A stretch of DNA of 64,000 nt from Acanthamoeba sp. SK_2022b (taxonomy: Eukaryota > Discosea > Longamoebia > Acanthamoebidae). Shown here one piece after another: positions 5,098 through 52,714 of this stretch (the first letter of the stretch is position 1; each line of letters opens with the position of its first letter). Made by a program: the position numbers and the translations under genes. The notes below the pieces were generated by a model that was not told the DNA's origin, made no database searches, and saw only the letters and a program-made list of their open reading frames with translations. The stretch spans positions 124,001 through 188,000 of the forward strand of contig JANDJZ010000023.1 of the NCBI GenBank assembly GCA_027943245.1. The letters run 5' to 3'.

Positions 5098-5158
<61 letters not shown>

Positions 5159-15109: not shown

Positions 15110-15213
15110 ATGAATTGGGCTTACTTACTGCTCTTCCTAGCCCTCCTTTCCGTAAGTGTCAGCAAAGGCCAAGGGTTCGTCATTCTCCATCCATCTCCGT
15201 CTTCTTCTTCTTC

Positions 15214-15245
<32 letters not shown>

Positions 15246-18200
15246 GGTCTTTTCTGTTGGTCTTCCCATTTCTTGATTTCGTTCATCTTTTTCCTTCTCC
15301 GGGGATTCAGTGTTTCATCATCGGTGGTTAGGTTCTGGTTGAGCGACTAATCAGTAGCTACTCTCCCCCTTTGTTATAGAGCGGAAGTAGTGTTTGAAGC
15401 AGATGGATCAGGAGAACTGCACGGCGACTTCACGGTCGATGGCCAACTCTACGTCAAGGGCAACGACACAGTTTTCGAGGGAGACCTCACAGTGAACGGC
15501 GAGACCACCGCAGCTACTCTGACTGCGGAGGAGGTCTCGACCACCAACCTGGCGGCACAAACCGCCAAAATCGCCGAGCTCGCAGTGGGCGAGAAGGGAT
15601 CTCTGTCGATAGTCGACGAGAGCTTCGTTATCTCTGGCGACTCTATCGTAGTCGACGCTCGCGAACTTCATCTTGGCGACAACCAGACTGAGGTTACCGT
15701 AGCGGGATCGGCTTCCTTCACCAGCCTCAACGCCGAGAGCGCTTCAATCATCGACGCTGAAATCAGCGGCGTGATCGCTGAGGATGTCCAGACCTCGACC
15801 CTCTCGGCCGTCGATGCCTCACTCACAAACGTAACGGCGGGATCGGTTCAAGTCGGCGAGCTCGAGGTCAGCGGAGATGCGCTCATCAACAGTCTTACCG
15901 TCTCCGGTGAGGCTTCGGTCGAGACCCTCGCAGTGACCGGAGGCGCCAGCTTTGCTACGTCGGAGGTGACCTTCGGTACCGCGTCAGGAGCTTTCACCTT
16001 CTCGCGACCGGAGGGCAGCGGACTCGCAACTTCATTAGAGGGTCAGGCCAACGCTGGAGGCGCTGGCGGTGATGTTCACATCACGGCTGGCCCCGGTCTC
16101 ACCGCCGGCGGTGACCTCTACCTCAACGCAGGCGATGGAACCGTTCAAGGAGAAGTCTTCATCGGTCAGACGGCGTCGGTTGTGCACATCGGTGGCGAGG
16201 GATCAACTATCGACATCGCCTCCCATGAGATCAACGTCGAGACTCTTCGCGCCGAGCATGTCGTCGTGACTGAGATCAGCGGTCACTGTTCGGAGAGCAA
16301 CCTGGGCGGAGACATCACGATCGATGGCGGTAATGGCAGCGATGGCCACGGCGCTGTGATCATCGGTGCCTCGAGCAGCGCGGTCGAGGTCGGCCGCGAG
16401 GGCGGTTTCACGAGCATCCACGGAGATGTCTCCGTGAGCGGAAGCACTGGCCTCCAGGATGTCATCATAGCGGGAGACCTCGAGCTGGGATCAAGCAGCT
16501 CGGCCTTCCACGCCTCCAGGCCCGTTCGCACCGACGAAGGACCCGCCTACTCGACGTACATCAGCGCTCAGGATGCCCAGCCCGGTAACAGGGGTGGGGA
16601 CCTCTACATTGACGCCGGTTCTAGTGACAACGGCGAAAACGGTATTGTCAAGATCGCCACCCGTGCTGGTGCGGTAGAAATTGGTCAGACAGACAGCGAC
16701 GTGACCATTCGCGGTCAGCTCACCGTTGAGGGTGGCCCCGTCACCTTCACCACCGTGACAGTGGAGGAGAACCTCGTCGTCGCCGGCTCCGAAATCGTCG
16801 TCGGATCGGGCGACCGCGCCTTCACAATGTCCCGCCCAGACGCGACGACCACTTCGTCTCACAGCACGTCAATCCTCGGTCAGAGCGGAGTCAACGGCGG
16901 CGGCGATCTCGTGCTTGCTGCCGGATACGGTGGTGCTAGCGCTCAAGGCGGCGACGTGCTGATCGATGGCGGTGATGGTGGGGACGCTGGTGCCGTCCGC
17001 ATCGCTAGCCAGCAGGGTGTCGCCCACCTTGGTCGCACCGATGCCGTCACCGTGGTCGAGGGCTCCCTCCACGTCAAGCAGGAGTCGCACTTCGACGACC
17101 TGGTGCAGATCACCGCCCCCCTCATAGTTGACGGAGCAATCCAGTCGGGCGGCCTCAGCGTCTCTGGCAGCGGCCTCTCCGTCGACGGCTCTTCGACCCT
17201 CTCAGGCAACGTCCACGTCAGCGGCATCGTACTCATCAATGGTGACACCGAGATCACCGGAACCCTAGGCGTCCAGTCCGCCGCCTCTTTCGGCGACACA
17301 GTGGACATTGATCTTAACCTCAACGTCGGCGGCGAGCTCGACGTTCATCAGCAGGCTCAATTCTTGAAGGGCGTCGACGTCAGCCTCGATGCCTTCGTTG
17401 GCGGACACCTTACGGTGGACGAGGACGCCGAGGTAAGGGGAGAGATCCTCGTCGGCGGTTCGGCCCACGTCATCGGCGACCTCAGCGTTGGCTCTGCCGC
17501 GTACGTCAACAGCGCTCAGGTTGCCTCCGACCTCTCTGTCGGCGGCGACGCATCAGTCGAAGGCTACCTCTACGCCACCCGCAGTGCCTGGGTCGGCGAG
17601 ACTATCCACGTTGGCGAGAGCGTCTTGGTCAATGGCAAGCTTTCCGTCGACGGAGTTGCAACGCTCTCCAACAACGTCCAGATTGACGGAGACGCTCGCG
17701 TTGGCAAGGACCTGCTCGTCCTCGAGGACGCGGATGTTACCGGTGACCTGACTGTCAGGTCGCAGGTCCGTTTTGGTGACGAACTCCTTGTAGAGAAGTC
17801 TACTAGCCTCGGCGCAGCCCTTCTCGTCGTGGGAGAGACCACCCTCGCCGACTCGCTCGAGGTAGTAGGAGCTACCTACCTCTACGCCGAGACCTCGGTC
17901 AGCGGTGTCCTTTACACCAAGGACGCCCAGGTTGATGGTGATCTGGAAGTGAGCGGCAATCACCTTGTGGAGGGCAATCTCGCCGTAACCGGAGTCTCCT
18001 CGCTGAGCGACAACGTGTTCATCTACGGTTCAGCTCGCGTCAGCGCCAACCTCAATGTCATGGAGGCTGCCACCTTGGGCGCCGAACTGACTGTGCGCGG
18101 CGACGTGCATACCGACGGCGAGCTGCTAGTGGAGAAGGCGACGAGCCTCGGCGAGACGCTGCTCGTCGTGGGCGAGACCACCCTCGAGGCCGACCTGCTC

Positions 18201-21200
18201 GTCGACGCCAACGCTGTCGTCTCGCAGTCGCTGACGGTTGTCAAGACGGCGACTGTCGAGGGAGTCGTGCGCGGTCTTTCAGATGTGCTCGTGGGCGGCG
18301 AGCTCAAGGTGGACGGGTTCACCGAGCTTCGCGACGGCCTCTTCGTCGCCGGTGTTTCCTCGTTCGCCGAGAACGCTACTTTTGACGCCAGCATGGAAGT
18401 GGGAGCGTTGCAAGTGAATGGCGACGCCGAGTTTGGCGGCCTCGTATCAGCCGATGGCGACGTTCGCACCAACGGAAACCTCTTTGTCGAGCTGGCGACC
18501 AGTATCGGCCAGGCTCTGTTCGTAGCTGGTCGTACTACTCTTGAAGCCACTCTCCTCTCGGCTTCCGTTGAGGTCTCCGAGACCCTCACGGTCGCCAAGG
18601 CGGCTACTGTACAGGGTGTCTTGCATGGCGAGAGCGACGTCCTCGTCGGGGCCCAGCTCAGCGTCGCTGGTTCCACTGAACTAGCATCTGGTCTCCATGT
18701 CACGGGTGTATCCACTTTCGCTGACCACGTTACCATCGCGGCCAATGCTGCTGTCGATGGCAGCCTAGAGGTGCGCGAGCAGCTGGCCGTTACCGGATTC
18801 GCATCGGTGCGCGGCAACGTGCAGACCGACGGCGAGCTGTTTGTGGAGAAGGCGACCAGCCTCGGCGAGACCCTTCTCGTCGTGGGCGAGACCACCGTTG
18901 GCGGCGACTTCCTTGCAATGTCCGATGCCACCGTCGAGGGCACTCTCGGCGTTGCCGGTGAGGCCACCTTCTCCGACGACGTTTCGGCTCAGAACGACCT
19001 CTCAGTGGCTCGCGACGTCCACATCGGCCGCGACGCCGAAGTCCTGGGCTCGCTTGACGTTCAGGGCAGCGCCGCTGTTGAGAGCGACCTCGCTGTCTCC
19101 GGCTCGTCTTCGTTGGGCTACACTCACGTTTCGCAGGATCTCTACGTCGTCGGTGACGCGGAAGTTGATGGCGAACTGTCGGTGCGCGGCGACGTGCAGA
19201 CCAACGGCAAGCTGTTTGTGGAGAAGGCGACCAGCCTCGGCGAGACCCTTCTCGTCGTGGGCGAGACCACCGTTGGCGGCGACTTCCTTGCGACGTCCGA
19301 TGCTACCGTCGAGGGCACTCTCAGCGTTGCTGGCAAGGCCACCTTCTCCGACGACGTTTCGGCTCAGAACGACCTCTCGGTGGCTCGCGACGTCCACATC
19401 GGCCGCGACGCCGAAGTCCTGGGCTCGCTTGACGTTCAGGGCAGCGCCGCTGTTGAGAGCGACCTCGCTGTCTCCGGCTCGTCTTCGTTGGGCTACACTC
19501 ACGTTTCGCAGGATCTCTACGTCGTCGGTGACGCGGAAGTTGATGGCGAACTGTCGGTGCGCGGCGACGTGCAGACCAACGGCAAGCTGTTTGTGGAGAA
19601 GGCGACCAGCCTCGGCGAGACCCTTCTCGTCGTGGGCGAAACTACTCTCGAAGAGAACCTTCTTGTTGACGCCGATGCCTACATCACCGGCAAATCTACT
19701 CTCGAGGATGATGTAATCGCTGGCAACGATCTGTCAGTAGCTCGCGACACCCTCATTGGCCGCGACGCATCGATCAAGGGCGACCTCGAGGTCACCCTGG
19801 ACGTTCTGATCGGCGAGACTCTCGACGTGACTGGCAAGACGACTCTGCAGTCGGACCTGGAGGCTCTTGCGGACGTGCACGTTAGCGGTCTTATGTCGGT
19901 TCTTGGTTCGACGTCGGTGCGCGGCGACGTGCACACCGACGGCGAGCTGTTCGTGGAGAAGGCCACCAGCCTTGGCAACCACCTCGTGGTCGTGGGCGAG
20001 ACCACTCTCGGCCGACCTGCTGGTCGACGCCAACGCTGTCGTCTCGCAGTCGCTGACAGTTGTCAAGACAGCAACTGTGAGGGCGTCGTGCGCGGTCTGT
20101 CAGACCGTGGGCGGCGAGCTCAAGGTGGACGGGTTCACCGAGCTTCGCGACGGCCTCTTCGTCGCCGGCCAGTCTTCGTTCGCCGAAAACGTGACGGTTG
20201 GCGCGGGTGCGGAAGTTTATGGCTCCGTGGGCGGCGATCTTGCTGTGGACGGCGATGGCGCATTCAGCTCGTCGACGCCAACGCTGTCGTCTCGCCAGCC
20301 TCGCTGACAGTTGTCAAGACAGCAACTGTTGAGGGCGTCGTGCGCGGTCTGTCAGACGTGTTCGTGGGCGGCGAGCTCAAGGTGGACGGGTTCACCGAGC
20401 TTCGCGACGGCCTCTTCGTCGCCGGCCAGTCTTCGTTCGCCGAAAACGTGACGGTTGGCGCGGGTGCGGAAGTTTATGGCGACGTTGCCGTGGGCGGCGA
20501 TCTTGCTGTGGACGGCGATGGCGCATTCAGCGGACTGGTGTCAGTGCGCGGCGATGTGAGGACTGACGGCGAGCTCTATGTGGAGAAGGCCACCAGCCTC
20601 GGCGCTCAACTCGTGGTCGTGGGCGAGACCACTCTCGAGGACGACCTGCTCGTCGACGCCAACGCTGTCGTCTCGCAGTCGCTGACAGTTGCCAAGACAG
20701 CAACTGTCGAGGGCGTCGTGCGCGGTCTGTCAGACGTGTTCGTGGGCGGCGAGCTCAAGGTGGACGGGTTCACCGAGCTTCGCGACGGCCTCTTCGTCGC
20801 CGGCCAGTCTTCGTTCGCCGAAAACGTGACGGTTGGCGCGGGTGCGGAAGTTTATGGCGACGTTGCCGTGGGCGGCGATCTTGCTGTGGACGGCGATGGC
20901 GCATTCAGCGGACTGGTGTCAGTGCGTGGCGACGTGCATACCGATGGCGAGCTCTATGTGGAGAAGTCCACCAGTCTCGGCCAGACGCTGTTCGTCGTGG
21001 GCGAGACCACTCTGCAGAGCGATGTATATGCTGAGGCTTCCGTCTCTGTCTCCCACGATATCCATGTTGGGCAGAACGCTCAAGTGCAGAAGAACCTCGG
21101 CGTCAGCGGCGAGACCTCCCTCGTGGGTGCCGTGTACGCAGACAGCAACCTCTGGGTTGGTGCCGGGTTATCGGTCGCCGGCGGGGCCGATGTCGCTGGC

Positions 21201-24200
21201 GTGACTTCGCTTCAAGACGACGTGTTTGTGGGCGGCAGCGCTAACATCAAGGCTGATCTTTCGGTACTCGGTTCGACTTCCGTTCGTGGCTACGTACACA
21301 CAGACGGCGAGCTGTTGGTGGAGAAGTCAACCAGCCTCGGCGCTCAACTCGTGGTCGTGGGCGAGACCACTCTCGAGGACGACCTGCTCGTCGACGCCAA
21401 CGCTGTCGTCTCGCAGTCGCTGACAGTTGTCAAGACAGCAACTGTCGAGGGCGTCGTGCGCGGTCTGTCAGACGTGATCGTGGGCGGCGAGCTCAAGGTG
21501 GACGGGTTCACCGAGCTTCGCGACGGCCTCTTCGTCGCCGGCCAGTCTTCGTTCGCCGAAAACGTGACGGTTGGCGCGGGTGCGGAAGTTTATGGCGATG
21601 TTGCCGTGGGCGGCGATCTTGCTGTGGACGGCGATGGCGCATTCAGCGGACTGGTGTCAGTGCGTGGCGACGTGCATACCGATGGCGAGCTCTATGTGGA
21701 GAAGTCCACCAGTCTCGGTCTGGATCTGTTCGTCGTGGGCAAGACCACACTTGCTGATGACCTGCTCGTAGACGCCGACGCTATCGTCACAGGCACATCA
21801 TCGCTCGAGGGCGACGTGTTCGCTGGCAACGATCTGTCAGTCGCACGCGACGCCGTCATCGGGCGCGATGCCAGCATTGGCGGCGATGCGTCGATCGAGG
21901 GCGACCTCGAGGTTTCGCAGGACGCCGTGGTCGAGCAGACGCTCAACGTTGTGGGCGAGACCACTCTCCAGTCAGACCTGCATGTGCTCAGCAACACACA
22001 CGTCCAGGGCTTCGTGTCGGTGCGCGGCGACGTGCACACCGACGGCGAGCTGTTTGTGGAGAAGTCCACCAGCCTCGGCGCTCACCTCGTGGTCGTGGGC
22101 GAGACCACTCTCGAGGACGACCTGCTCGTCGACGCCAACGCCGTCGTCTCGCAGTCGCTGACAGTTGTCAAGACGGCGACTGTAGAAGGTGTCGTGCGCG
22201 GTCTGTCAGACGTGTTCGTGGGCGGCGAGCTCATGGTGGACAAGTTCACCGAGCTTCGCGACGGGCTCTACGTCGACGGTATGTCTTCGTTCGCCGAGGA
22301 CATTGCTGTTGGCGCCAACGTTGAGGTGAGCGGCAACGTTGCCGTGGGCGGCGATCTTGCTGTGGACGGCGATGGCGCATTCGGCGGACTGGTGTCAGTG
22401 CGTGGCGACGTGCATACCGATGGCGAGCTCTATGTGGAGAAGTCCACCAGTCTCGGCCAGACGCTGTTCGTCGTGGGCGAGACCACTCTTGCTGATGACC
22501 TGCTTGTCGACGCCGACTTGCGTGTCACGGGCACGTCATCACTCGAAGGCGACGTGTTCGCTGGCAACGACCTGTCGGTTGCTCGCGACGTCGTCATCGG
22601 GCGCGATGCCAGCATTGGCGGCGATGCGTCGATCGAGGGCGACCTCGAGGTTTCGCAGGACGCCGTGGTCGAGCAGACGCTCAACGTTGTGGGCGAGACC
22701 ACCCTTCAGGCTCACCTGCACGCTCGTGCCGACGCCTACGTTGGTGGCGATCTGTCGGTCGGTGGATTCCATCCGCGGCGACGTGCACACCGACGGCGAT
22801 CTCTGTGGAGAAGTCCACCAGCCTCGGCCAGGACGTGACGGTGGTGGGCGAGACCAGCCTCGGCGCTGGGCGACGTGCAGGGCGAGACCACCATCACAAC
22901 TGTCTTCGTCTGACAGGCACCCTCTACGACCTCTCGGTCGATCGCAACCTTGTGCTGGTGGTTGGGTGACGGAGATCTCTGGCACGGTCCTCGTGGGCGG
23001 CCTCACGTCGCTTCACGGCTCCAAAGCGACCTGCTCGTGAGCGCTGACGCGCTTGTTACAGGTGCGCTGTCGGTGCGCGGCGACGTTCGCACCGACGGCG
23101 AGCTGTTTGTGGAGAAGTCCACCAGCCTCGGCCAGGACGTGACGGTGGTGGGCGAGACCAGCCTCGGCGCTGGGCTCGACGTGCAGGGCGAGACCACCAT
23201 CCACAACTGGCTCTTCGTCGACAACGACGCCCAGGTGACAGGCACCCTGTGGGTGGACTACGACCTCTCGGTCGATCGCAACCTTGTGCTTGGCAACGAC
23301 GCCTCGGTTGCTGGTGATGCGGAGATCTCTGGCACGGTCCTCGTGGGCGGCCTCACGTCGCTTCAGGACAGGCTGGTGGTTGACGGCGAGACGACGCTCC
23401 AAAGCGACCTGCTCGTGAGCGCTGACGCGCTTGTTACGGGCGCGCTGTCGGTGCGCGGCGACGTTCGCACCGATGGCGATCTGTTCGTGGAGAAGTCGAC
23501 CAGCCTCGGCGAGACTCTGCTCGTCGTGGGCGAGACCACTCTCGAGGCCGACCTGCTCGTCGATGCCGACGCTGTCGTCACGGGCACGTCATCTCTCGAG
23601 GGCGACGTGTTCGCTGGCAACGATCTGTCAGTCGCTCGCGATGCTGTGATCGGGCACGATGCGACAGTCGCGGGCGACCTCGAGGTTGGTTCAGACGTTC
23701 TTGTGGGCGAGACTCTGAGCGTTGTGGGCGAGACCACTCTCGAGTCTCTCCTCCACGCTCGTTCCGACGTTGACGTTGGTGGCGATCTGTCGGTCGGCGG
23801 TCAAGCTTCCATCCGCGGCGACGTGCACACCGACGGCGAGCTGTTTGTGGAGAAGTCGACCAGCCTCGGCGAGACTCTGCTCGTCGTGGGCGAGACCACT
23901 CTCTCTGCTGACCTGCTCGTCGAGGCTGATGCTTCGGTTACTGGCTCTATTGCCGTTGGTGACACTGTCACAACGGCTACACTTTCTGTACTCAGCGACG
24001 CGCATGTCGTGGGCACCACCTTCTCGGGCAACCTTCATGTCGAGGACGTCTCTTCACTTTTCGGTGACGTGTACGTCAACGGCGACGCCTATCTCAACCA
24101 GGCTCTCTACGTTGAAGTTCTTGCGTCGGTGCGCGGAAACATCGAGACCGACGGCGAGCTGTTGGTAGAGAAGGCGACGAGCCTCGGCGAAACTCTGCTC

Positions 24201-27200
24201 GTCGTAGGCCAGACCACTCTCTTGGCTGACCTTTACGTTGATGCTGACGCTGTCGTCACGGGCGCTTCGTCGCTCGAGGGCGACGTGTTCGCTGGCAACG
24301 ATCTCTCGGTTGCTCGCGACGCCGTCATCGGCCGCGATGCGACAGTCGAGGGCGACCTCGAGGTTGGTTCGGACGTTCTTGTGGGCGAGGCGTTGAGCGT
24401 TGTGGGCGAGACCACTTTGGAGTCGCACCTGCACGCTCGTTCCGACGCCTATGTTGGTGGCGATCTGTCGGTCGGCGGTTGGGCTTCCATCCGCGGCGAC
24501 GTGCACACCGACGGCGACCTTTTCGTGGAGAAGGCGACCAGCCTCGGCGAGACTCTGCTCGTCGTGGGCGAGACCACCCTCTCCGCTGATCTTCTCGTCG
24601 ACGCCGACGCTGTCGTCACAGGCACATCATCACTCGAAGGCGACGTGTTCGCCGGCAACGATCTGTCAGTCGCTCGCGACGCCGTCATCGGGCGCGATGC
24701 CAGCATTGGCGGCGATGCGTCGATCGAGGGCGACCTCGAGGTTTCGCAGGACGCCGTGGTCGAGCAGACGCTCAACGTTGTGGGCGAGACCACCCTTCAG
24801 GCTCACCTGCACGCTCGTTCCGACGCCTACGTTGGTGGCGATCTGTCGGTCGGCGGTTGGGCTTCCATCCGCGGCGACGTGCACACCGACGGCGAGCTGT
24901 TTGTGGAGAAGTCCACCAGCCTCGGCAAGGACGTGACGGTGGTGGGCGAGACCAGCCTCGGCGCTGGGCTCGACGTGCAGGGCGAGACCACCATCCACAA
25001 CTGGCTCTTCGTCGACAACGACGCCCAGGTGACAGGCACCCTGTGGGTGGACTACGACCTCTCGGTCGATCGCAACCTTGTGCTTGGCAACGACGCCTCG
25101 GTTGCTGGTGATGCGGAGATCTCTGGCACGGTCCTCGTGGGCGGCCTCACGTCGCTTCAGGACAGGCTGGTGGTGGACGGCGAGACGACGCTTCAAAGCG
25201 ACCTGCTCGTGAGCGCTGACGCGCTTGTTACGGGCGCGCTGTCGGTGCGCGGCGACGTTCGCACCGATGGCGATCTGTTTGTGGAGAAGTCGACCAGCCT
25301 CGGCGAGACTCTGCTCGTCGTGGGCGAGACCACCCTCTTGGCGGACTTGCTCGTCGATGCTGATGCTGTCGTCACGGGCATGTCATCTCTCGAGGGCGAC
25401 GTGTTCGCTGGCAACGATCTGTCCGTTGCTCGCGATGCTGTGATCGGGCGCGATGCGACTGTCGAGGGCGACCTCGAGGTTGGTTCGGACGTTCTTGTGG
25501 GCGCGACGCTGAGCGTTGTGGGCGAGACCACTCTTGAGTCTCTCCTCCATGCTCGTTCCGACGTCGCCGTTGGTGGCGATCTGTCGGTCAGCGGTTGGGC
25601 TTCCATCCGCGGCGACGTGCACACCGACGGCGATCTCTTCGTGGAGAAGTCGACCAGCCTCGGCGAGACTCTGCTCGTCGTGGGCGAGACCACCCTCTTG
25701 GCGGACTTGCTCATCGATGCCGACGCTGTCGTCACAGGCACGTCATCTCTCGAGGGCGACGTGTTCGCCGGCAACGATCTGTCAGTCGCTCGCGACGTCG
25801 TCATCGGGCGCGATGCCAGCATTGGCGGCGATGCGTCGATCGAGGGCGACCTCGAGGTTTCGCAGGACGCCGTGGTCGAGCAGACGCTCAACGTTGTGGG
25901 CGAGACCACCCTTCACTCAATCCTGCATGCTCTTTCCGACGCCTACGTGAGCGCTGATCTGTCGGTCGGCGGTTGGGCTTCCATCCGCGGCGACGTGCAC
26001 ACCGACGGCGAGCTGTTCGTGGAGAAGGCGACCAGCCTCGGCGCTACTCTGCTCGTCGTGGGCGAGACCACTCTCGAGGCCGACCTGCTGGTCGATGCCA
26101 ACGCTGTCGTCACAGGCACGTCATCGCTCGAGGGCGACGTGTTCGCTGGCAACGATCTGTCAGTCGCTCGCGATGCTGTGATCGGCCGCGATGCATCGAT
26201 CGAGGGCAACCTCGAGGTTGGTTCAGACGTTCTTGTGGGCGAGACGCTGAGCGTCGTGGGCGAGACCACTCTCGAATCACACCTCCACGCTCGCTCCGAC
26301 GTATATGTCGGTGCTGATCTTTCAGTCGGCGGTTCGGCTTCCATCCGCGGCGACGTGCACACCGACGGCGATCTCTTTGTGGAGAAGTCCACCAGCCTCG
26401 GCGAGACTCTACTCGTCATTGGCGAGACCACCCTCTCCGCTGATCTGCTCGTCGATGCTGACGCTGTCGTTACGGGCGCATCATCTCTCGAAGGCGACGT
26501 GTTTGCAGGAAACGACCTGTCAGTCGCTCGCGACGTCGTCATCGGGCGCGATGCCAGCATTGGCGGCGATGCGTCGATCGAGGGCGACCTCGAGGTTTCG
26601 CAGGACGCCGTGGTCGAGCAGACGCTCAACGTTGTGGGCGAGACCACCCTTCAGGCTCACCTGCACGCTCGTGCCGACGCCTACGTTGGTGGCGATCTGT
26701 CGGTCGGCGGTTGGGCTTCCATCCGCGGCGACGTTCACACCGACGGCGAGCTGTTTGTGGAGAAGTCCACCAGCCTCGGCAAGGACGTGACGGTGGTGGG
26801 CGAGACCAGCCTCGGCGCTGGGCTCGACGTGCAGGGCGAGACCACCATCCACAACTGGCTCTTCGTCGACAACGACGCCCAGGTGACAGGCACCCTGTGG
26901 GTGGACTACGACCTCTCGGTCGATCGCAACCTTGTGCTTGGCAACGACGCCTCGGTTGCTGGTGATGCGGAGATCTCTGGCACGGTCCTCGTGGGCGGCC
27001 TCACGTCGCTTCAGGACAGGCTGGTGGTTGACGGCGAGACGACGCTCCAAAGCGACCTGCTCGTGAGCGCTGACGCGCTTGTTACGGGCGCGCTGTCGGT
27101 GCGCGGCGACGTCAACACCGATGGCGATCTGTTTGTGGAGAAGTCGACCAGCCTCGGCGAGACTCTGCTCGTCGTGGGCGAGACCACCCTCTTGGCGGAC

Positions 27201-42200: not shown

Positions 42201-45200
42201 TTGACGGTCAGGCTTCCATCCGCGGCGACGTGCACACCGACGGCGATCTGTTCGTGGAGAAGTCCACCAGCCTCGGCGACCACCTCGTGGTCGTGGGCGA
42301 GACCACTCTCGAGGACGACCTTCTCGTCGACGCCAACGCTGTCATCTCGCAGTCGCTGACAGTTGTCAAGACGGCAACTGTCGAAGGTGTCGTGCGCGGT
42401 CTGTCAGACGTGCTCGTGGGCGGCGAGCTCAAGGTGGACAAGTTCACCGAGCTTCGCGACGGCCTCTACGTCGACGGCCTGTCTTCGTTCGCCGAGGACA
42501 TGACCGTGGGCGCCAACGTTGATATTACCGGCAACGTGAACATTGGTGAAGACCTTGAGGTCGGCCAGGATGCGTCCATCATCGGCGATCTCTCCGTACG
42601 CGGTGACGTTAACACCGATGGCGATCTGTTCGTGGAGAAGAGCACGAGCCTCGGCAATGACCTCACGGTTGTGGGCGAGACCAGCCTTAACGCTGGCCTC
42701 GATGTGCTGGGCGCCACCTACCTCCATGATTCGCTCAGTGTTGACTCCGACGCGCGCATCACAGGCACTCTTTCAGTAGAGTCGGACCTCACGGTCGACA
42801 AGGATGTGGTCGTGTATGGCGACCTCTCTGTGGATGGCGCCACCTCTTTGTCATCGACTCTCGACGTCTTTGGCGTGGCCTCATTCGCCACCGACGTGAC
42901 CGTGGCTGCTGACGCTCTTGTGGAGGGCAGCCTCGTGGTCAACGTCAACGCTGATGTCATCGGCGACATTTCCGTTCACGGCGACGTCAACACGGATGGC
43001 GAGCTATTCGTGGAGAAGAGCACGAGCCTCGGCAACACGCTCTACGTGCACGCTGGCACCGACCTCGGCTCCACTCTTGAAGTGGCAGGCGCGAGCAGCT
43101 TCCAGGGCTACGTCTTCGTCAACAACGAAGCCTCCATCTCTGGCACCGTGTGGGCTGGCTGGGACATGTCGGTCGATCGCGACGTCATCGTCGGCAGGAA
43201 CACCCACCTCCTTGGCGACCTGGCCGTCAGCGGCAAGGCGCAGGTGGACGGCAAGTCATCGGTCAAGGGCGAGCTCGTCGTGGACGACAAGGTCACCTTC
43301 CAAGACGATCTCGATGTCTATGGCGAGGTGTCGGTGCGCGGCGACGTCAACACCGACGGCGATCTGTTCGTGGAGAAGTCCACCAGCCTCGGCGATCACC
43401 TCACGGTCGTGGGCGAGACGAGCTTGGGCTCAGGCCTCGACGTGCTTGGCGAGACCAGCATCCACAACTGGTTCTTCGTCGACAACGACGCCCAGGTGAC
43501 GGGCACCCTGTGGGTGGACTACGACCTCTCAGTCGGTCGCAACCTCGTGCTCGAGAACGACGCCTCGGTCGGCGGCGACGTCGAGATCAGCGGCTACGCC
43601 CTCGTGAGCGGCCTGGCATCGCTCGAGGACCGACTTGTGGTCGACGGCGAGACGACCCTCGCGAGCGACCTGTTCGCGCGGGCCGACGTCTTGGTGGATG
43701 GCGAGCTGTCGGTGAACGGCGACGTGCAGATCGACAGCGCGCTGTTTGTCGAGGATGCCACGAGCCTCGGCGACGACCTCACGGTCGTGGGCGAGACCAG
43801 CCTCAACGCCGGTCTCGACGTGCTGGGCGCCACCTATCTCCACGCCTCCCTCAGCGTCGACGCTGATATGCGCGTTTTGGGCACTCTGTCGGTTGGAACT
43901 GATCTCACCGTTGACCACAACGCCCATGTGTCTGGTACCCTTTCAGTCACTGGTGCTACTGTTCTGGCATCAACTTTCGAAGTTGCTGGACACGCTGCGT
44001 TCGCTTCGGGGGTTGCATCGTTCATTGCCGACGTGACCATGGAAGCGGATGCGCATGTTGATGGCAGTCTCGTGGTCAACGCCAATGCCAACGTTCATGG
44101 CGAAGTGTCCGTGCGCGGCGACGTCAACACGGATGGCGAGCTGTTCGTGGAGAAGAGCACGAGCCTCGGCAACACGCTCTACGTGCACGCTGGCACCGAC
44201 CTCGGCTCCACTCTTGAAGTGGCAGGCGCGAGCAGCTTCCAGGGCTACGTCTTCGTCAACAACGAAGCCTCCATCTCTGGCACCGTGTGGGCCGGCTGGG
44301 ACATGTCGGTCGACCGCGACGTCATCGTCGGCAGGAACACCCACCTCCTTGGCGACCTGGCCGTCAGCGGCAAGTCACAGGTGGACGGCAAGTCATCGGT
44401 CAAGGGCGAGCTCGTCGTGGACGACATGGTCACCTTCCAAGACGATCTCGATGTCTATGGCGAGGTGTCGGTGCGCGGCGACATCAACACCGACGGCGAT
44501 CTGTTCGTAGAGAAGAGCTCGAGCCTCGGCGCCAACCTCACGGTCGTGGGCGAGACGAGCTTGGGCTCAGGCCTCGACGTGCAGGGCGAGACCAGCATCC
44601 ACAACTGGTTCTTCGTCGACAACGATGCCCAGGTGACGGGCACCCTGTGGGTGGACTACGACCTCTCAGTCGGTCGCAACCTCGTGCTCGAGAACGACGC
44701 CTCGGTCGGCGGCGACGTCGAGATCAGCGGCTACGCCCTCGTGAGCGGCCTGGCATCGCTCGAGGACCGACTTGTGGTCGACGGCGAGACGACCCTCGCG
44801 AGCGACCTGTTCGCGCGGGCCGACGTCTTGGTGGATGGCGAGCTGTCGGTGAACGGCGACGTGCAGATCGACAGCGCGCTGTTTGTCGAGGATGCCACGA
44901 GCCTCGGCGACGACCTCACGGTCGTTGGCGAGACCAGCCTCAATGGCGACCTCGACGTGCTGGGCGCCACCTACCTCCATGCTTCGCTCAGCGTCGATGC
45001 CGACGCGCTCATCACAGGCACTCTGTCGGTCGAGTCGGACCTCACGGTCGACGAGGACGCGGTCGTGTCTGGCGACCTCTCTGTGGACGGCGCCACCTCT
45101 TTGTCATCGACTCTCGACGTCTTTGGCGTGGCCTCATTCGCCGCCGATGTGACCGTGGCTGCTGACGCTCTTGTGGAGGGCAGCCTCGTGGTCAACGTCA

Positions 45201-48200
45201 ACGCTGATGTCATCGGCGACATTTCCGTTCACGGCGACGTCAACACGGATGGCGAGCTGTTCGTGGAGAAGAGCACGAGCCTCGGCAACACGCTCTACGT
45301 GCACGCTGGCACCGACCTCGGTTCCACTCTTGAAGTGGCAGGCGCGAGCAGCTTCCAGGGCTACGTCTTCGTCAACAACGAAGCCTCCATCTCTGGCACC
45401 GTGTGGGCCGGCTGGGACATGTCGGTCGACCGCGACGTCATCGTCGGCAGGAACACCCACCTCCTTGGCGACCTGGCCGTCAGCGGCAAGGCGCAGGTGG
45501 ACGGCAAGTCATCGGTCAAGGGCGAGCTCGTCGTGGACGACAAGGTCACCTTCCAAGACGATCTCGATGTCTATGGCGAGGTGTCGGTGCGCGGCGACGT
45601 CAACACCGACGGCGATCTGTTCGTGGAGAAGAGCTCGAGCCTCGGCGCCGACCTCACGGTCGTGGGCGAGACCAGCCTCAGGGGCCGCCTCGACGTGCTT
45701 GGCGAGACCACCATCCACAACTACCTCTCCGTCACCAACGACGCCGCCGTGACAGGCACCCTCTGGGCCGACTTCGACCTCTCGGTCGGCCGCGATCTCA
45801 TCGTCGAGAGCAACGTGTGGACCAAGGGCACCCTCCAGGTCGACCAGCAGACCTCCCTCAGGTCGGACCTCGTGGTCGACGGCAGCAGCACGCTCGCCGG
45901 CGATCTGCTGGCTCAGGCCGATGCGCTCATCAGCGGCGAGCTGTCGGTGCGCGGCAACGTGCGCACCGACGGCGATCTGTTCGTGGAGAAGACCACCAGC
46001 CTCGGCGACGACCTCACGGTCGTTGGAGAGACCAGCCTCACTGGCGGCCTCGACGTGCTGGGCGCCACCTATCTCCATGCTTCGCTCAGTGTTGACGCCG
46101 ACGCGCTCGTCACAGGCACTCTGTCGGTCGAGTCGGACCTCACGGTCGACGAGGACGCGTTCGTGTCTGGCGACCTCTCTGTGGATGGCGCCACCTCTCT
46201 GTCATCGACTCTCGACGTCTTTGGCGTGGCCTCATTCGCCACCGACGTGACCGTGGCTGCTGACGCTCTTGTGGAGGGCAGCCTCGTGGTCAGCACCGAC
46301 GCTGACGTTCTGGGAGACGTTTCCGTTCACGGCGACATCAACACTGATGGCGAGCTGTTCGTGGAAAAGAGCACGAGCCTCGGCGACGACCTCACGGTCG
46401 TTGGCGAGACCAGCCTCAACGCCGGTCTCGACGTGCTGGGCGCCACCTATCTCCATGCTTCGCTCAGTGTTGACGCCGACGCGCTCATCACAGGCACTCT
46501 GTCGGTCGAGTCGGATCTCACGGTCGACGATGACGCGTTCGTGTCTGGCGACCTCTCTGTGGACGGCGCCACCTCTCTGTCATCGACTCTCGACGTCTTT
46601 GGCGTGGCCTCATTCGCCACCGACGTGACCGTGGCTGCTGACGCTCTTGTGGAGGGCAGCCTCGTGGTCAACGTCAACGCTGATGTCATCGGCGACATTT
46701 CCGTTCACGGCGACATCAACACGGATGGCGAGCTGTTCGTGGAGAAGAGCACGAGCCTCGGCAACACGCTCTACGTGCACGCTGGCACCGACCTCGGTTC
46801 CACTCTTGAAGTGGCAGGCGCGAGCAGCTTCCAGGGCTACGTCTTCGTCAACAACGAAGCCTCCATCTCTGGCACCGTGTGGGCTGGCTGGGACATGTCG
46901 GTCGACCGCGACGTCATCGTCGGCAGGAACACCCACCTCCTTGGCGACCTGGCCGTCAGCGGCAAGTCACAGGTGGACGGCAAGTCATCGGTCAAGGGCG
47001 AGCTCGTCGTGGACGACAAGGTCACCTTCCAAGACGATCTCGATGTCTATGGCGAGGTGTCGGTGCGCGGCGACATCAACACCGACGGCGATCTGTTCGT
47101 GGAGAAGACCACCAGCCTCGGCGCCAACCTCACGGTCGTGGGCGAGACGAGCTTGGGCTCAGGCCTCGACGTGCTTGGCGAGACCAGCATCCACAACTGG
47201 TTCTTCGTCGACAACGACGCCCAGGTGACGGGCACCCTGTGGGTGGACTACGACCTCTCAGTCGGTCGCAACCTCGTGCTCGAGAATGACGCCTCGGTCG
47301 GCGGCGACGTCGAGATCAGCGGCTACGCCCTCGTGAGCGGCCTGGCATCGCTCGAGGACCGACTTGTGGTCGACGGCGAGACGACCCTCGCGAGCGACCT
47401 GTTCGCGCGGGCCGACGTCTTGGTGGATGGCGAGCTGTCGGTGAACGGCGACGTGCAGATCGACAGCGCGCTGTTTGTCGAGGATGCCACGAGCCTCGGC
47501 GACGACCTCACGGTCGTGGGCGAGACCAGCCTCTCTGGCGGCCTCGACGTGCTGGGCGCCACCTATCTCCATGCTTCGCTCAGCGTCGACGCCGACGCGC
47601 TCGTCACAGGCACTCTGTCGGTCGAGTCGGATCTCACGGTCGACGAGGACGCGGTCGTGTCTGGCGACCTCTCTGTGGACGGCGCCACCTCTCTGTCATC
47701 GACTCTCGACGTCTTTGGCGTGGCCTCATTCGCCACCGACGTGACCATGGCTGCTGACGCTCTTGTGGAGGGCAGCCTCGTGGTCAACACCGACGCTGAC
47801 GTTCTGGGAGACGTTTCCGTTCACGGCGACATCAACACTGATGGCGAGCTGTTCGTGGAAAAGAGCACGAGCCTCGGCGACGACCTCACGGTCGTTGGCG
47901 AGACCAGCCTCAACGCCGGTCTCGACGTGCTGGGCGCCACCTATCTCCATGCTTCGCTCAGCGTCGACGCCGACGCGCTCATCACAGGCACTCTGTCGGT
48001 CGAGTCGGATCTCACGGTCGACGATGACGCGTTCGTGTCTGGCGACCTCTCTGTGGACGGCGCCACCTCTCTGTCATCGACTCTCGACGTCTTTGGCGTG
48101 GCCTCATTCGCCGCCGATGTGACCGTGGCTGCTGACGCTCTTGTGGAGGGCAGCCTCGTGGTCAACGTCAACGCTGATGTAGTCGGCGACGTTTCCGTTC

Positions 48201-51200
48201 ACGGCGACGTCAACACGAATGGCGATCTCTACGTGGAGAAGAGCACGAGCCTCGGCGACGACCTCACGGTCGTTGGCGAGACCAGCCTCAATGGCGACCT
48301 CGACGTGCTGGGCGCCACCTATCTCCATGCTTCGCTCAGCGTCGACGCCGACGCGCTCATCACAGGCACTCTGTCGGTCGAGTCGGATCTCACGGTCGAC
48401 GAGGACGCGTTCGTGTCTGGTGACCTCTCTGTGGATGGCGCCACCTCTCTGTCATCGACTCTCGACGTCTTTGGCGTGGCCTCATTCGCCGCCGACGTGA
48501 CCGTGGCTGCTGACGCTCTTGTGGAGGGCAGCCTCGTGGTCAACGTCAACGCTGATGTCATCGGCGACATTTCCGTTCACGGCGACGTCAACACGGATGG
48601 CGAGCTGTTCGTGGAGAAGAGCACGAGCCTCGGCAACACGCTCTACGTGCACGCTGGCACCGACCTCGGCTCCACTCTTGAAGTGGCAGGCGCGAGCAGC
48701 TTCCAGGGCTACGTCTTCGTCAACAACGAAGCCTCCATCTCTGGCACCGTGTGGGCCGGCTGGGACATGTCGGTCGACCGCGACGTCATCGTCGGCAGGA
48801 ACACCCACCTCCTTGGCGACCTGGCCGTCAGCGGCAAGGCGCAGGTGGACGGCAAGTCATCGGTCAAGGGCGAGCTCGTCGTGGACGACAAGGTCACCTT
48901 CCAAGACGATCTCGATGTCTACGGCGAGGTGTCGGTGCGCGGCGACGTCAACACCGACGGCGATCTGTTCGTGGAGAAGACCACCAGCCTCGGCGCCAAC
49001 CTCACGGTCGTGGGCGAGACGAGCTTGGGCTCAGGCCTCGACGTGCAGGGCGAGACCAGCATCCACAACTGGTTCTTCGTCGACAACGACGCCCAGGTGA
49101 CGGGCACCCTGTGGGTGGACTACGACCTCTCAGTCGGTCGCAACCTCGTGCTCGAGAACGACGCCTCGGTCGGCGGCGACGTCGAGATCAGCGGCTACGC
49201 CCTCGTGAGCGGCCTGGCATCGCTCGAGGACCGACTTGTGGTCGACGGCGAGACGACCCTCGCGAGCGACCTGTTCGCGAGGGCCGACGTCTTGGTGGAT
49301 GGCGAGCTATCGGTGAACGGCAACGTGCAGATCGACAGCGCGCTGTTTGTCGAGGACGCCGCGAGCCTCGGCGACGACCTCACGGTCGTGGGCGAGACCA
49401 GCCTCAACGCCGGTCTCGACGTGCTGGGCGCCACCTATCTCCATGCTTCGCTCAGTGTTGACGCCGACGCGCTCATCACAGGCACTCTGTCGGTCGAGTC
49501 GGATCTCACGGTCGACGATGACGCGTTCGTGTCTGGCGACCTCTCTGTGGACGGCGCCACCTCTCTGTCATCGACTCTCGACGTCTTTGGCGTGGCCTCA
49601 TTCGCCACCGACGTGACCGTGGCTGCTGACGCTCTTGTGGAGGGCAGCCTCGTGGTCAGCACCGATGCTGACGTTCTGGGAGACGTTTCCGTTCACGGCG
49701 ACGTCAACACTGATGGCGATCTCTACGTGGAAAAGAGCACGAGCCTCGGCGACGACCTCACGGTCGTTGGCGAGACCAGCCTCAACGGCGGTCTCGACGT
49801 GCTGGGCGCCACCTATCTCCATGCTTCGCTCAGCGTCGACGCCGACGCGCTCATCACAGGCACTCTGTCGGTCGAGTCGGATCTCACGGTCGACGATGAC
49901 GCGTTCGTGTCTGGCGACCTCTCTGTGGACGGCGCCACCTCTTTGTCATCGACTCTCGACGTCTTTGGCGTGGCCTCATTCGCCGCCGATGTGACCGTGG
50001 CTGCTGACGCTCTTGTGGAGGGCAGCCTCGTGGTCAACACCGACGCTGACGTTCTGGGAGACGTTTCCGTTCACGGCGACGTCAACACGAATGGCGATCT
50101 CTACGTGGAGAAGAGCACGAGCCTCGGCGACGACCTCACGGTCGTGGGCGAGACCAGCCTCAGCGGCCGCCTCGAAGTGCAGGGCGAGACCACCATCCAC
50201 AACTACCTCTCCGTCACCAACGACGCAGCCGTGACAGGCACCCTCTGGGCCGACTTCGACCTCTCGGTCGGCCGTGACCTCATCGTCGAGAGCAACGTGT
50301 GGACCAAGGGCACCCTCCAGGTCGACCAGCAGGCCTCCCTCAGGTCGGACCTCGTGGTCGACGGCAGCAGCACGCTCGCCGGCGATCTGCTGGCTCAGGC
50401 CGATGCGCTCATCAGCGGCGAGCTGTCGGTGCGCGGTAACGTGCACACCGATGGCGATCTGTTCGTGGAGAAGACCACCAGCCTCGGCAGCAACGTAACC
50501 GTGGTGGGCGAGACCAGCCTCGGCGGCAAGCTCGACGTTCTGGGCCAGACCAGCATCCATGACTTCTTCTTCGTTGATAATGATGCTCAGATCACTGGCA
50601 CCGTCTTCATCGATTTCGATCTTTCCATCGACCGCTTCCTGCGCGTCGAAAGCGACTCCGAGCTCGTTGGCAAGCTGCACGTCGGTGATAACGTTATTAT
50701 TGACGGCCTCACCTCGCTAAACGGCCTCGACGTTACTGGCCAGACCACTCTCAGCGACGACCTCTTCGTCGTTGGTGCTGGCTCCATTGGCGGTCTGCTG
50801 ACGGTTAGAGGCAACCTTGGTACCGATGGCAACCTGTTGGTTGAGAACGACTCGCGTATCGGCGGCCTCCTCTCCGTCGTCGGCGACGCCGAGCTTGACA
50901 GCGACCTTTCCGTCGGCGGTAGTGTCGATGTTATTGGCGATCTTGTCGTATCTCAGACCCTGCTTGTCACCCTCGATGCTACCCTCAAGGGCGACGTGGC
51001 CATTGATCAGGACCTCTCCGTGGGCGGCGGTTTGAGCGTCACCCTTCTCGCCAGGTTCCTCGACGAGCTCTCGGTCTCAGGAACTACCTCCCTCGAGGCC
51101 GATGTCTACGCTCACCGTCTGCACGTCCGCGACACCCTTTCCGTCGGGGGCGTCGCCGTCATCCAGGGAACCTTCTCCGTTGACGACACCGCCACCATCG

Positions 51201-52714
51201 ATGGCACTGTGAGCATCGGCAACGCCCTGTCCGTTCACCACAAGGTTGTATTCGAGAACACTCTCGAAGTAGCCGGTCAGGTGAACTTCAGCCACGACCT
51301 CTCAGTGAGCGGCGACGTTCACCTGGACGTAGACCTCTCGGTAGATGGCCAGGCCACCATTGGCGGCAAGCTGAGCGTTGCGGGCCTTACCACCCTGCTC
51401 GGCGAGCTGTCCGTCAAGCAAAACGCCGAGTTCCTGGCCAGCGCTGCCATCTTCGGTGACCTCGACGTCGGTCAGCTTGCCCGCTTCGTCGGTGACGTGC
51501 ATCTCACCAGCGATCTCAGCGTCGATGGCGCGACCACTCTTGCCGTCCTCAGCGTCAGCGGTCTCTCCGAGTTCAGCGACGATGTCGAGATCTCGGCCGA
51601 TCTTAGCGTGAGCGGCGACCTCACTGTGGGCGGTGCTTTGTCCCTAAGCATGCTCACTGTGGGCTCCGACGCCACTATCGGCGACAACCTGTTTGTGCAG
51701 GACTACGCCACCATAGGAATCGACCTGGAGGTCTACGGTGCGGTCTCGGTGGGCTCGGACCTCGAGGTCACCGGTTCCACTACGCTCGCCTTCGTTGAGG
51801 CCAACACCCTCAGCGTAAGCCATAACCTCATCGCCAACAAGGATCTCTTCGTCACCAAAGATGTTGCCGTCTCTGGTTCCGTCACCGTGGCCGGTGGCCT
51901 CAACGTCATCCAAGACGTCACCGTCATTGGCACCCTCACCGCCGACTACGTCCGCGCTGTCAACGGCCTCCACGCCCTTGGCACCACCCAACTTGGCGGC
52001 ACCGACATCTCCGGTTATCTCAGCGTGGCTGGCGATGTGAGCCTCGATTCCACGCTCTACGTCTCCGATAGCCTCACCGTGGCCGGCGAGTTGGTTCTCC
52101 TCGACTCACTCTCGCTGGCCCAGGACCTCACCGTCTCCGGCGTGACCGCCCTTGACGATGTTGTTGTCGCTGGTGAGCTCTCCCTAGAGGGCCGTCTCGA
52201 GCTGGCCAAGAAGCCGCTCTCATTCCCTTATCCTGGCGTGGTTGCCGGCGTGCCTGTCAACCTGCTCGACACCGTCACCGCCCATCCTTCGTCGCCTCTT
52301 AGCTACTACCTGCACACCTTCGCTGATTCGGGTGCCGCCAGCACAGATTACTTTGCCCTCTCTCTCCCCGGTGGAGCGTTCTACCAGCTCGAGCCGCTCG
52401 ACCTCGATCTCCCCATGGTTTCGCGCATCGAGACGACTAACTACCAGGTGGGAGACATCATCATGCTCAAGGGTTCCAGCAAAGACAAGATCATCGCCTT
52501 CTGGGACTTCGAGGACCTGGTGAACGTCGTCGGCTCCGGTCCCAACGGCAACTTGTACAACGGCAGGGACATGTCGACGGCCACCCTCAACTTCTACACC
52601 GAGTACCTCTACTCGGACGACATCTTCATCTACATGTATTCGCCTCGCACTCGCGTCGGTGTCGCCGGTTCTGCGATACAGACCATTCCCATCGAGTGGG
52701 TGAAGCTCAACTAA
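15110..52714 (+). CDS. giant secreted hexapeptide-repeat beta-solenoid protein
   Basis: Exon 1 (15110-15174) encodes a signal peptide, MNWAYLLLFLALLSVSVSKG. Intron 15175-15379 is followed by one 37,335-base exon to the stop at 52714, about 12,400 residues if the three frame breaks are repaired. Nearly all of it follows a six-residue period of the form D-x-x-(V/L/I)-x-(G/x), for example DLSVGG, DASIEG, DLLVDA. This resembles left-handed beta-helix hexapeptides (I-G-x-N/D-A/V-x); a bactofilin-like helix is the alternative. Composition is Asp/Glu/Gly/Val/Ser-rich, strongly acidic, poor in Lys/Pro, with only one in-frame Cys found (near 16286). N-terminal GGD-rich modules and a non-repetitive C-terminal domain cap the rod. 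There is no C-terminal membrane segment, so it is probably released or incorporated into wall or matrix. Function is unknown; adhesion, cyst wall or surface coat are guesses. Confidence 0.85.
15175..15379 (+). other. only intron of the giant gene, with TTG/TTC repeats
   Basis: 205-base intron between signal-peptide exon and repeat exon. Donor GTTCGT leaves phase 2; acceptor TATAG at 15379 restores the frame (...KGQG-AEVVFEAD). A stronger-looking GTAAGT at 15152 gives the wrong phase with this acceptor. A TTC then TTG triplet run spans about 15198-15246. Confidence 0.75.
15985..17060 (+). repeat. N-terminal GGD-rich modules of the giant protein
   Basis: Three diverged copies of a roughly 70-80 residue module begin near 15985, 16494 and 16810, with a shorter copy at about 16285-16420. 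Each full copy opens with an (F/H)-x-x-(S)RP motif (FTFSRPEG, FHASRPVR, FTMSRPDA). A (S/T)-x-I-x-(G/A)Q-like turn, GGD(L/V)xLxxG(x)G segments and a closing hexad such as VEIGQTDSDV follow. The modules are spliced into the hexad rod at a spacing that keeps the frame. No named domain is recognised. Confidence 0.7.
18090..22755 (+). repeat. repeat block A (LTVVKTATVEG type)
   Basis: Alternating hexad units anchored by VRGDVHTDGELFVEK-like segments, with a distinctive long unit containing SQSLTVVKTATVEGVVRG, GGELKVDGFTELRDG and SSFAENVTVG. Near-identical copies sit around 20640-20960, 21370-21690 and 22100-22410. Two consecutive 360-base copies (18829-19188 and 19189-19548) are almost identical. 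Confidence 0.85.
19990..20330 (+). other. frame-break zone 1 in the giant gene
   Basis: Compared with the intact copy at 20620-20960, this stretch lacks AG after CTCG at about 20010. It carries further small losses (CTGTGAGG for CTGTCGAGG near 20078, GACCGTGGGCG near 20104, GGCTCCGTGGG near 20220) and a fused junction at about 20268-20300. Between about 20010 and 20270 the peptide in the main frame is nonsense rich in Arg and Cys, while the expected hexads are readable in another frame. The net effect restores the original frame. Confidence 0.85.
22755..23040 (+). other. frame-break zone 2 in the giant gene (stop at 22836-22838)
   Basis: Aligned by eye with the intact copy at 24843-25211, this stretch is 81 bases shorter overall, spread over at least seven separate losses. 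Examples are CGGTGGATTCC for CGGCGGTTGGGCTTCC, ATCTCTGTGG for ATCTCTTCGTGG and GGGCGACG for GGGCTCGACG. The total is divisible by three, so the same frame resumes, but a stop falls at 22836-22838. Confidence 0.88.
23040..31365 (+). repeat. repeat block B (360-base units plus TIHNWLFVDNDAQ units)
   Basis: Mostly 120-residue (20-hexad) units: SIRGDVHTDGELFVEK, TSLGETLLVVGETT, DLLVDADAVVTGTSSLEG, DVFAGNDLSVARDAVIG and DLEVGSDVLVGETLSV. These are punctuated by a second unit, GLDVQGETTIHNWLFVDN followed by DLSVDRNLVLGNDASVAG, at about 23160, 24960, 26820 and 29370. Copies differ at scattered third positions and by alternation of a few hexads. Confidence 0.9.
31365..31430 (+). other. frame-break zone 3 in the giant gene (frame change)
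   Basis: Where intact copies read CAGGACGCCGTGGTCG this one reads CAGACGCCTGGTCG (two bases fewer). About 40 bases later CCCTTCGAATCACAC looks like a hybrid of CCCTTCAGG and CTCTCGAATCACAC with one base extra. The net change of -1 moves the open frame; the upstream frame reaches a stop at 31559 and the downstream frame runs unbroken to 52714. Confidence 0.9.
31440..35640 (+). repeat. repeat block C, mixed and partly unique hexads
   Basis: Units of blocks B and D interleaved with less repetitive hexads (32680-33000 and 34900-35640). Strict 360-base spacing is visible for the VHTDGDLFVEK segment at about 33735, 34095 and 34455. Confidence 0.85.
35640..42560 (+). repeat. higher-order repeat array, 1,476- and 1,836-base super-units
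   Basis: A super-unit contains three or four 360-base units, one FNALVGKTLSV/ALNALVGETLNV unit and one LTVVKTATVEG unit. Equivalent points at 37060 and 38536 are 1,476 apart; 38536, 40372 and 42208 are 1,836 apart. The two spacings differ by exactly one 360-base unit, and 39588-41424 repeats almost base for base in the next copy. Confidence 0.9.
42560..50500 (+). repeat. repeat block D (ATYLHASLSVDAD / AGTDLGSTLEVAG units)
   Basis: New unit families: LDVLGATYLHASLSVDAD with SLSSTLDVFGVASFA; LYVHAGTDLGSTLEVAG with GTVWAGWDMSVDRDVIVG; TSIHNWFFVDNDAQ with SVGRNLVLENDAS; and GTLWADFDLSVGRDLIVE (45710-45950 and 50200-50440). Equivalent points at 44245, 45361, 46837 and 48709 are 1,116, 1,476 and 1,872 bases apart, all multiples of 18. 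One exception, a 21-base insertion, lies near 43990-44030. Confidence 0.9.
50500..52195 (+). other. degenerate hexad zone near the C-terminus
   Basis: Hexad period persists (DLSVGG, DLTVGG, NLFVQD) but no stretch is near-identical to another, and VRGD anchors are sparse. This is the pattern expected at the edge of an expanding tandem array, where units diverge without being homogenised. Confidence 0.8.
52195..52711 (+). other. C-terminal non-repetitive domain of the giant protein
   Basis: About 170 residues with no hexad period, rich in Tyr, Phe and Pro: starts near ELAKKPLSFPYPGVVAG, continues through SYYLHTFADSG, ALSLPGGAFYQLEPL, NYQVGDIIMLKGSS and DDIFIYMYSPRTRVG, ends IPIEWVKLN. It looks like a compact beta-rich cap. 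No Cys and no membrane or GPI signal are visible. No family was recognised. Confidence 0.7.

What the first reader, a model, noticed from the sequence alone, without database searches (positions are those of the whole stretch)
15110..52714. A ~12,400-residue secreted protein built almost wholly of hexapeptides
Seen directly: signal peptide, then about 2,000 consecutive six-residue repeats with V/L/I at one fixed position and D or G flanking, and a unique C-terminal cap. Hexapeptide periodicity of this form is known from left-handed beta-helix enzymes, where coils of 18 residues rise about 0.48 nm. Inference: if one rod forms, some 680 coils would give a fibre around 0.3 micrometre long. I know of no described eukaryotic protein with this design; I could not search.
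Basis: partly seen in the sequence, partly recalled or inferred. Interest (0 to 1): 0.88.

Follow-up and report, generated by a model that had tools for sequence, protein, structure and literature searches.

The report
Giant secreted beta-solenoid protein of Acanthamoeba
An amoeba gene appears to encode an enormous secreted protein, about 12,400 residues, built mainly of six-residue repeats that probably wind into one very long stiff rod; it belongs to an apparently undescribed family with shorter relatives in the amoeba Balamuthia and other eukaryotes.

Summary
The array is real: 11,425 of 12,258 scored residues (about 1,904 hexads) lie in strict hexapeptide register, mostly in 120- or 126-residue units whose copies evolved under purifying selection (median dN/dS 0.30). 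It is not one clean frame: frame is lost at three places, at least one of which looks like sequence error. The locus is single-copy in an Acanthamoeba genome. It is not isolated: its C-terminal cap, without Pfam, NCBIfam or credible PDB match, also ends five other eukaryotic proteins (2,048-4,515 residues), including Balamuthia mandrillaris QOT17_005424. Much of the array's resemblance to bactofilin, hexapeptide and phage families comes from hexad composition, because column-shuffled controls match too. The strongest period is 12, not 6. An AlphaFold2 model (pLDDT 78) superposes at 3.0-3.8 Å on right-handed beta-helices but only at 11.6-12.7 Å on left-handed ones; sequence profiles favour left-handed enzymes, so handedness is open, leaning right. 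Most likely a secreted, acidic beta-solenoid rod up to about 0.3 micrometre long, an extracellular fibre or tether. Secretion, rod continuity and function are inferred; expression of this gene is untested.

The parts
15110..15174 (+). Presumed exon 1: hydrophobic leader (putative signal peptide)
   Evidence: ATG at 15110; leader read directly. Hydropathy 1.45 over 19 residues. P0003 and P0004 have comparable leaders.
15175..15379 (+). Presumed intron; donor weak, acceptor TTATAG after a pyrimidine-rich stretch
   Evidence: One of 82 stop-free combinations; chosen by me.
15380..17093 (+). N-terminal region: imperfect repeats with three modules of the form F..SRP..GQ..GGD
   Evidence: Three module matches in segment A1; also 2, 2 and 3 in P0002, P0003 and P0004, none in 12 other proteins. 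No Pfam match.
17094..52204 (+). Strict hexapeptide array in units mostly of 120 or 126 residues, interrupted by three frame breaks
   Evidence: 11,425 of 12,258 residues in strict register; 33 and 29 of 76 anchor spacings are 120 and 126 residues.
19930..20360 (+). Stretch containing frame break 1
   Evidence: 5 gap openings, 14 gap bases, 11 mismatches to best other copy over 351 columns.
22720..23090 (+). Stretch containing frame break 2; missing bases with few mismatches, suggesting sequence error
   Evidence: 15 gap openings, 81 gap bases, 4 mismatches over 452 columns.
31330..31460 (+). Stretch containing frame break 3
   Evidence: 3 gap openings, 3 gap bases, 4 mismatches over 133 columns.
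52196..52711 (+). C-terminal cap domain (VGDII..KG, GN.YNGR, YMYSPR, EWVK motifs)
   Evidence: Matches the C-termini of P0002, P0003, P0004, P0006, P0007; no Pfam or NCBIfam match.

Best explanation
A giant secreted protein of an Acanthamoeba species. After removal of the leader the hexads wind into a parallel beta-solenoid with about three hexads (18 residues) per coil, giving a stiff, strongly acidic rod of up to about 300 nm. N-terminal modules and a conserved C-terminal cap finish its ends. It works as an extracellular fibre or tether (surface coat, wall fibre or adhesive spacer), and its length changes by tandem amplification of 120/126-residue units. Shown: array, register, single copy, selection on repeat copies, shared cap family. 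Predicted: solenoid fold. Inferred: secretion, one continuous rod, extracellular role.
Against: Three frame breaks. No expression evidence for this gene. The leader is judged by eye and is no more hydrophobic than the best array window; P0002 shows no leader. Model confidence is moderate, from an alignment of the array's own copies. Foldseek finds no PDB match at E <= 0.001. The A. castellanii cyst-wall Table 1 as seen lists nothing above 146 kDa. Register slips in places, so the rod may be interrupted.
Confidence: 0.6

Rival explanations
1. [quoted passage not shown] otherwise the same rod.
For: PDB sequence profile ranks LpxD first (1.1e-9); Pfam Hexapep above its cut-off in 2 of 6 pieces (37.6 and 44.4 bits); NCBIfam acyltransferase models match one array piece, none reaching its cut-off. 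By Z alone a left-handed chain (2pig, 18.7) ties with the best right-handed one (19.3).
Against: Superposition on left-handed chains is 11.6-12.7 Å against 3.0-3.8 Å for the best right-handed ones. Column-shuffled sequences give equal Hexapep scores.
Confidence: 0.25
2. The hexad array was acquired from, or shares descent with, structural fibres of phages or giant viruses.
For: 18 viral predicted structures match at E <= 0.001, among them proteins of Pyramimonas orientalis virus, Gaeavirus, Tetraselmis virus 1 and Synechococcus phages; PHROGs matches to 4.5e-56; cap-less database relatives, four of ten with Peptidase_S74. Real sequence scores 29-45 bits above column-shuffled for phrog_36281.
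Against: Column-shuffled sequences match phrog_5070 as well as the real ones (88.7 and 89.8 against 87.0 and 86.6 bits) and phrog_7964 lower in one case, higher in the other. The cap was not confirmed in viral contigs or genome contigs (146 and 87 pattern stretches).
Confidence: 0.12
3. The locus is a decaying gene or a partly misassembled array, so no 12,400-residue protein exists.
For: Three frame breaks; near-identical copies are hard to assemble; relatives are 2,048-4,515 residues.
Against: Segment C alone is 7,104 residues without a stop and ends in the conserved cap; dN/dS 0.30; break 2 has 81 missing bases but only 4 mismatches.
Confidence: 0.2
4. Chains form an intertwined trimeric beta-helix, as in viral fibres, rather than a single-chain solenoid.
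For: Similar hexad text in viral fibre and baseplate families.
Against: The single-chain model is coherent at pLDDT 78. Trimers were not modelled.
Confidence: 0.12

Closest known systems
Balamuthia mandrillaris hypothetical protein QOT17_005424 (P0004, 2,555 aa) and EukProt proteins P0002, P0003, P0006, P0007
   Same: Cap at the C-terminus (29.8-43.7% identity), hexad repeats, F..RP..GQ..GGD modules in P0002-P0004, leaders in P0003 and P0004.
   Different: 2,048-4,515 residues; hexad periodicity weaker (acf 12 of 0.08-0.17 against 0.49-0.51).
Bactofilins (PF04519)
   Same: Pfam model matches array pieces above cut-off; hydrophobic triangular beta-helix design.
   Different: Bactofilins are small, about 110-residue-domain, bacterial cytoskeletal proteins (PMC12448750, one passage); here thousands of residues, an apparent leader and a different cap. 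Much of the match is composition.
Left-handed beta-helix hexapeptide acyltransferases (LpxD, LpxA, GlmU)
   Same: Hexapeptide pattern; nearest PDB sequences by profile.
   Different: No NCBIfam model reaches its cut-off; structural superposition poor; no enzyme domain found by Pfam.
Phage and giant-virus fibre, baseplate and structural proteins with hexad repeats
   Same: Closest predicted-structure matches and PHROGs matches.
   Different: No cap match; some relatives carry Peptidase_S74, which none of six scanned pieces here matched.
Giant1-5 surface proteins of Apilactobacillus kunkeei (PMC12863079, abstract and outline seen)
   Same: Extracellular proteins of 3,000-8,000 residues, with beta-solenoid domains in Giant1-4.
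   Different: Solenoid only at the N-terminal end; bacterial; no sequence comparison was made here.

Membership tests
Cap-sharing eukaryotic hexad-solenoid family (defined here) | C-terminal cap | tested here: met
   Matches P0002, P0003, P0004, P0006, P0007 (E 8.6e-13 to 2.5e-41 against 15 proteins); 27 invariant columns among 4 of the 6 caps aligned.
Cap-sharing eukaryotic hexad-solenoid family (defined here) | N-terminal F..RP..GQ..GGD modules | tested here: met
   3 in the window, 2, 2, 3 in P0002-P0004; 0 in P0006 and P0007, whose N-termini may be incomplete. The pattern was written after seeing the motif.
Cap-sharing eukaryotic hexad-solenoid family (defined here) | Leader peptide | tested here: inconclusive
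   Seen by eye in the window, P0003, P0004; not in P0002, P0006, P0007; no predictor run.
Bactofilin | PF04519 match | tested here: inconclusive
   4 of 6 pieces above cut-off, but of two column-shuffled controls one passes (33.8 bits) and one just fails (26.9 against 27.9); real pieces score 38.7 and 46.3.
Bactofilin | Small protein with a single ~110-residue central domain | tested here: not met
   Hexad array of about 11,425 residues; definition from PMC12448750.
Bactofilin | Head-to-head polymerisation into filaments | not testable with these tools
   Needs biochemistry.
Left-handed beta-helix hexapeptide transferases | Hexapep repeats (PF00132) | tested here: inconclusive
   Above cut-off in 2 of 6 pieces; column-shuffled controls score 27.7 and 27.4 against 27.7 and 24.3 for the real pieces.
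Left-handed beta-helix hexapeptide transferases | Left-handed coil | tested here: inconclusive
   Model superposes far better on right-handed chains, sequence profile favours left-handed ones.
Left-handed beta-helix hexapeptide transferases | Acyltransferase subfamily model above cut-off | tested here: not met
   22 NCBIfam models match one array piece at E <= 0.1, none reaches its cut-off; cap and N-terminal region match none.
Viral fibres with Peptidase_S74 | Peptidase_S74 domain (PF13884) | tested here: not met
   No match in six pieces at E <= 1, including the cap and the last 733 residues before it; not every part of the array was scanned.

The most novel reading that the evidence does not exclude
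A single polypeptide folds into one nearly uninterrupted beta-solenoid of some 600 coils, about 0.3 micrometre long, secreted by an amoeba and closed by a new cap domain: a gene-encoded extracellular rod whose length is set by the copy number of a 120/126-residue unit.
Probability: 0.35. Interest if true: 0.82.

Novelty: new variant of a known kind. Interest (0 to 1): 0.62.

Why it matters
Hexad beta-solenoids are familiar from bacterial enzymes, bactofilins and viral fibres. An apparently undescribed eukaryotic family that uses the design at 2,000-12,000 residues, with its own cap domain, would add a new kind of extracellular fibre protein in Amoebozoa, found here in two genera that include human pathogens (recalled). 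It offers a testable case of how protein length evolves by unit copy number, and a possible surface or wall marker.

Tried and rejected
Bactofilin or phage homology from HMM hits alone: not accepted as evidence of descent, since column-shuffled sequences match the same families. The real pieces do score higher for some (12 bits for Bactofilin, 29-45 bits for phrog_36281), so shared descent is not excluded. Cap in viruses or prokaryotes: no confirmed match. Cap structure: model pLDDT 49.8, too weak to search. An aspartate ladder at position 1 of stacked hexads: D/N there shows no correlation at hexad lag 3 (-0.05 to 0.02). A solved bactofilin did not appear among the rows shown by VIA-align or the profile matches, which tests nothing. 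The cap of P0003 as query found only itself and not P0002, so absence in that search means little. By the length rule of the tool, orthologues over 12,432 residues, between 3,500 and 3,907, and under 1,100 residues lay outside the two window-based protein searches, so other Acanthamoeba orthologues may exist unseen. Paper searches listed no paper whose title or abstract start describes this protein or family; the library holds only open-licence papers. Poor tryptic coverage as the reason for absence from proteomes: 56 distinct 7-30-residue tryptic peptides are predicted from segment C, covering 23% of it, so detection should be possible. Phage tblastn: 10 records, all under 60% identity, best E 1e-10, seven of them annotated as acyltransferases.

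Full report
What is there. On the + strand an ATG at 15110 opens a hydrophobic leader. After a presumed intron (15175-15379, my choice among 82 stop-free splice combinations) the frame enters imperfect repeats and then a strict hexapeptide array that ends in a non-repeat domain and a stop at 52714. The strict register covers 11,425 of 12,258 residues scored, about 1,904 hexads; shuffled sequence gives 2-6%. Higher-order units are 120 or 126 residues: 33 and 29 of 76 anchor spacings.

Not one clean frame. Open stretches are 15351-22838, 22914-31559 and 31214-52714, with an off-frame patch near 19971-20310. Each break was compared with its best other copy in the window. The stretch 22720-23090 shows 15 gap openings and 81 gap bases, all in the broken copy (452 columns, 371 bases), but only 4 mismatches: a pattern of sequence error rather than slow decay. 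The other two have 5 and 3 gap openings. Of 39 random 370-base control pieces, 9 had any gap; two of these had 11 and 33 gap openings, but at 84% and 69% identity, so against divergent copies. Whether the living gene is intact is not shown. Of 934 same-length pairs among 62 units, the 322 with 75-98% identity have median dN/dS 0.30 (interquartile 0.24-0.36), all below 1, so the repeats evolved as protein.

Whose genome. The window lies in a 44.9 Mb, 1,129-contig assembly. Two of its profilins differ at 5 and 6 of 125 positions from solved profilins IA (1prq) and II (1f2k). That these are Acanthamoeba castellanii proteins is recalled; the tool printed only the molecule names. So this is an Acanthamoeba close to, but not the same as, that strain. 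Flanking genes look eukaryotic (ABC_membrane_2, RED_N and EMP24 above cut-off, RhoGAP just below). The cap and the N-terminal region match only this locus, as do all 17 bactofilin-profile matches and all 93 matches of one unit, the counts being lower bounds.

Relatives. Three protein searches were made. Last 705 residues, candidates of 3,907-12,432 residues by the tool's length rule: two hits, P0002 (4,033 aa) and P0003 (4,515 aa), EukProt proteins with Trinity names. Cap of P0003: only itself. Last 361 residues, candidates of 1,100-3,500 residues: 13 hits, the best Balamuthia mandrillaris QOT17_005424 (P0004, E 3e-45). Of these 15 proteins five carry the cap (P0002, P0003, P0004, P0006, P0007); the other ten do not match it, and four of those have Peptidase_S74 among their precomputed domains. 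The N-terminal module occurs in the window, P0002, P0003 and P0004 and in none of the 12 others, two of which (P0006, P0007) do carry the cap. The window, P0003 and P0004 have a leader-like N-terminus; P0002, P0006 and P0007 do not. Balamuthia and Acanthamoeba both belong to Centramoebida. Species behind the EukProt names were not given. The cap has no match in Pfam for the window's own copy (one of four members gave a weak GH3_M hit, E 0.038), none in NCBIfam, and only weak, scattered PDB hits (best E 0.093 alone, 0.72 as a profile). It was not confirmed in viral or prokaryote contigs.

What the array matches, and a control. Four of six pieces match Pfam Bactofilin (best E 4e-23), and array pieces match phage families (best E 4.5e-56). 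I shuffled residues within hexad columns, keeping only the period-6 composition, and tested two such pieces plus one full shuffle. Column-shuffled pieces still score 26.9 and 33.8 bits for Bactofilin (real 38.7 and 46.3), equal or better for Hexapep (27.7 and 27.4; real 27.7 and 24.3), equal for phrog_5070, and 61 and 77 bits for phrog_36281 (real 106 and 106). The full shuffle matches nothing. So a large part of these hits says 'hexad solenoid'; the excess in the real sequence may be the 12-residue alternation or true kinship, and I cannot tell which.

Mechanism. The chain is strongly acidic (D+E 2,063, K+R 480), with no cysteine and 2 prolines in the first 6,930 residues of segment C. No 19-residue hydropathy window in A1, A2 or B exceeds 1.6 and four in C do (maximum 1.70, inside the array), while the leader reaches 1.45; a membrane anchor is not apparent, and secretion rests on the leader and its counterparts in two relatives. 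Its use as surface coat, wall fibre or adhesive spacer is inferred. In the A. castellanii cyst-wall study (PMC6541295, passages) Table 1 as seen lists nothing above 146 kDa; five further secreted proteins are named without masses in the passages seen, and supplements were not read.

Novelty. The solenoid principle is known, and so are giant extracellular proteins with beta-solenoid domains in bacteria (PMC12863079, abstract). The eukaryotic family, its cap and the size of this member appear undescribed within the searches named, which cover open-licence papers only.

Noticed in passing
P0004 residues 1-80 (Balamuthia QOT17_005424): The gene model has 80 residues before a clear leader (MKALLCLALVLLGSLAVLA at 81), so its annotated start may lie too far upstream.
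   Followed up: no
window 15380-52714: About 37 kb of presumed coding sequence without an apparent intron; the open frames are broken only at the three places described.
   Followed up: partly
window 15216-15245: A run of GTT/TTG triplets lies inside the presumed first intron.
   Followed up: no
window 4001-6000: Strong base skew on the + strand (AT skew 0.494, GC skew 0.206) with long overlapping open frames on both strands and a weak C2H2 zinc-finger match (E 0.0013, below cut-off) in 5098-6789.
   Followed up: no
P0011, P0013, P0014, P0015: Proteins of 2,437-2,597 residues from environmental sources combine Bactofilin and Peptidase_S74 in their precomputed domains; a virus-like fibre design without the cap.
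   Followed up: no
P0005 and P0008: Two 3,265-residue proteins share the same N-terminus (MPLSRLENFIKNVEGTILYVNPTDQDATDSIENQGNSLTRPFKTI) and carry Bactofilin-type repeats without the cap.
   Followed up: no
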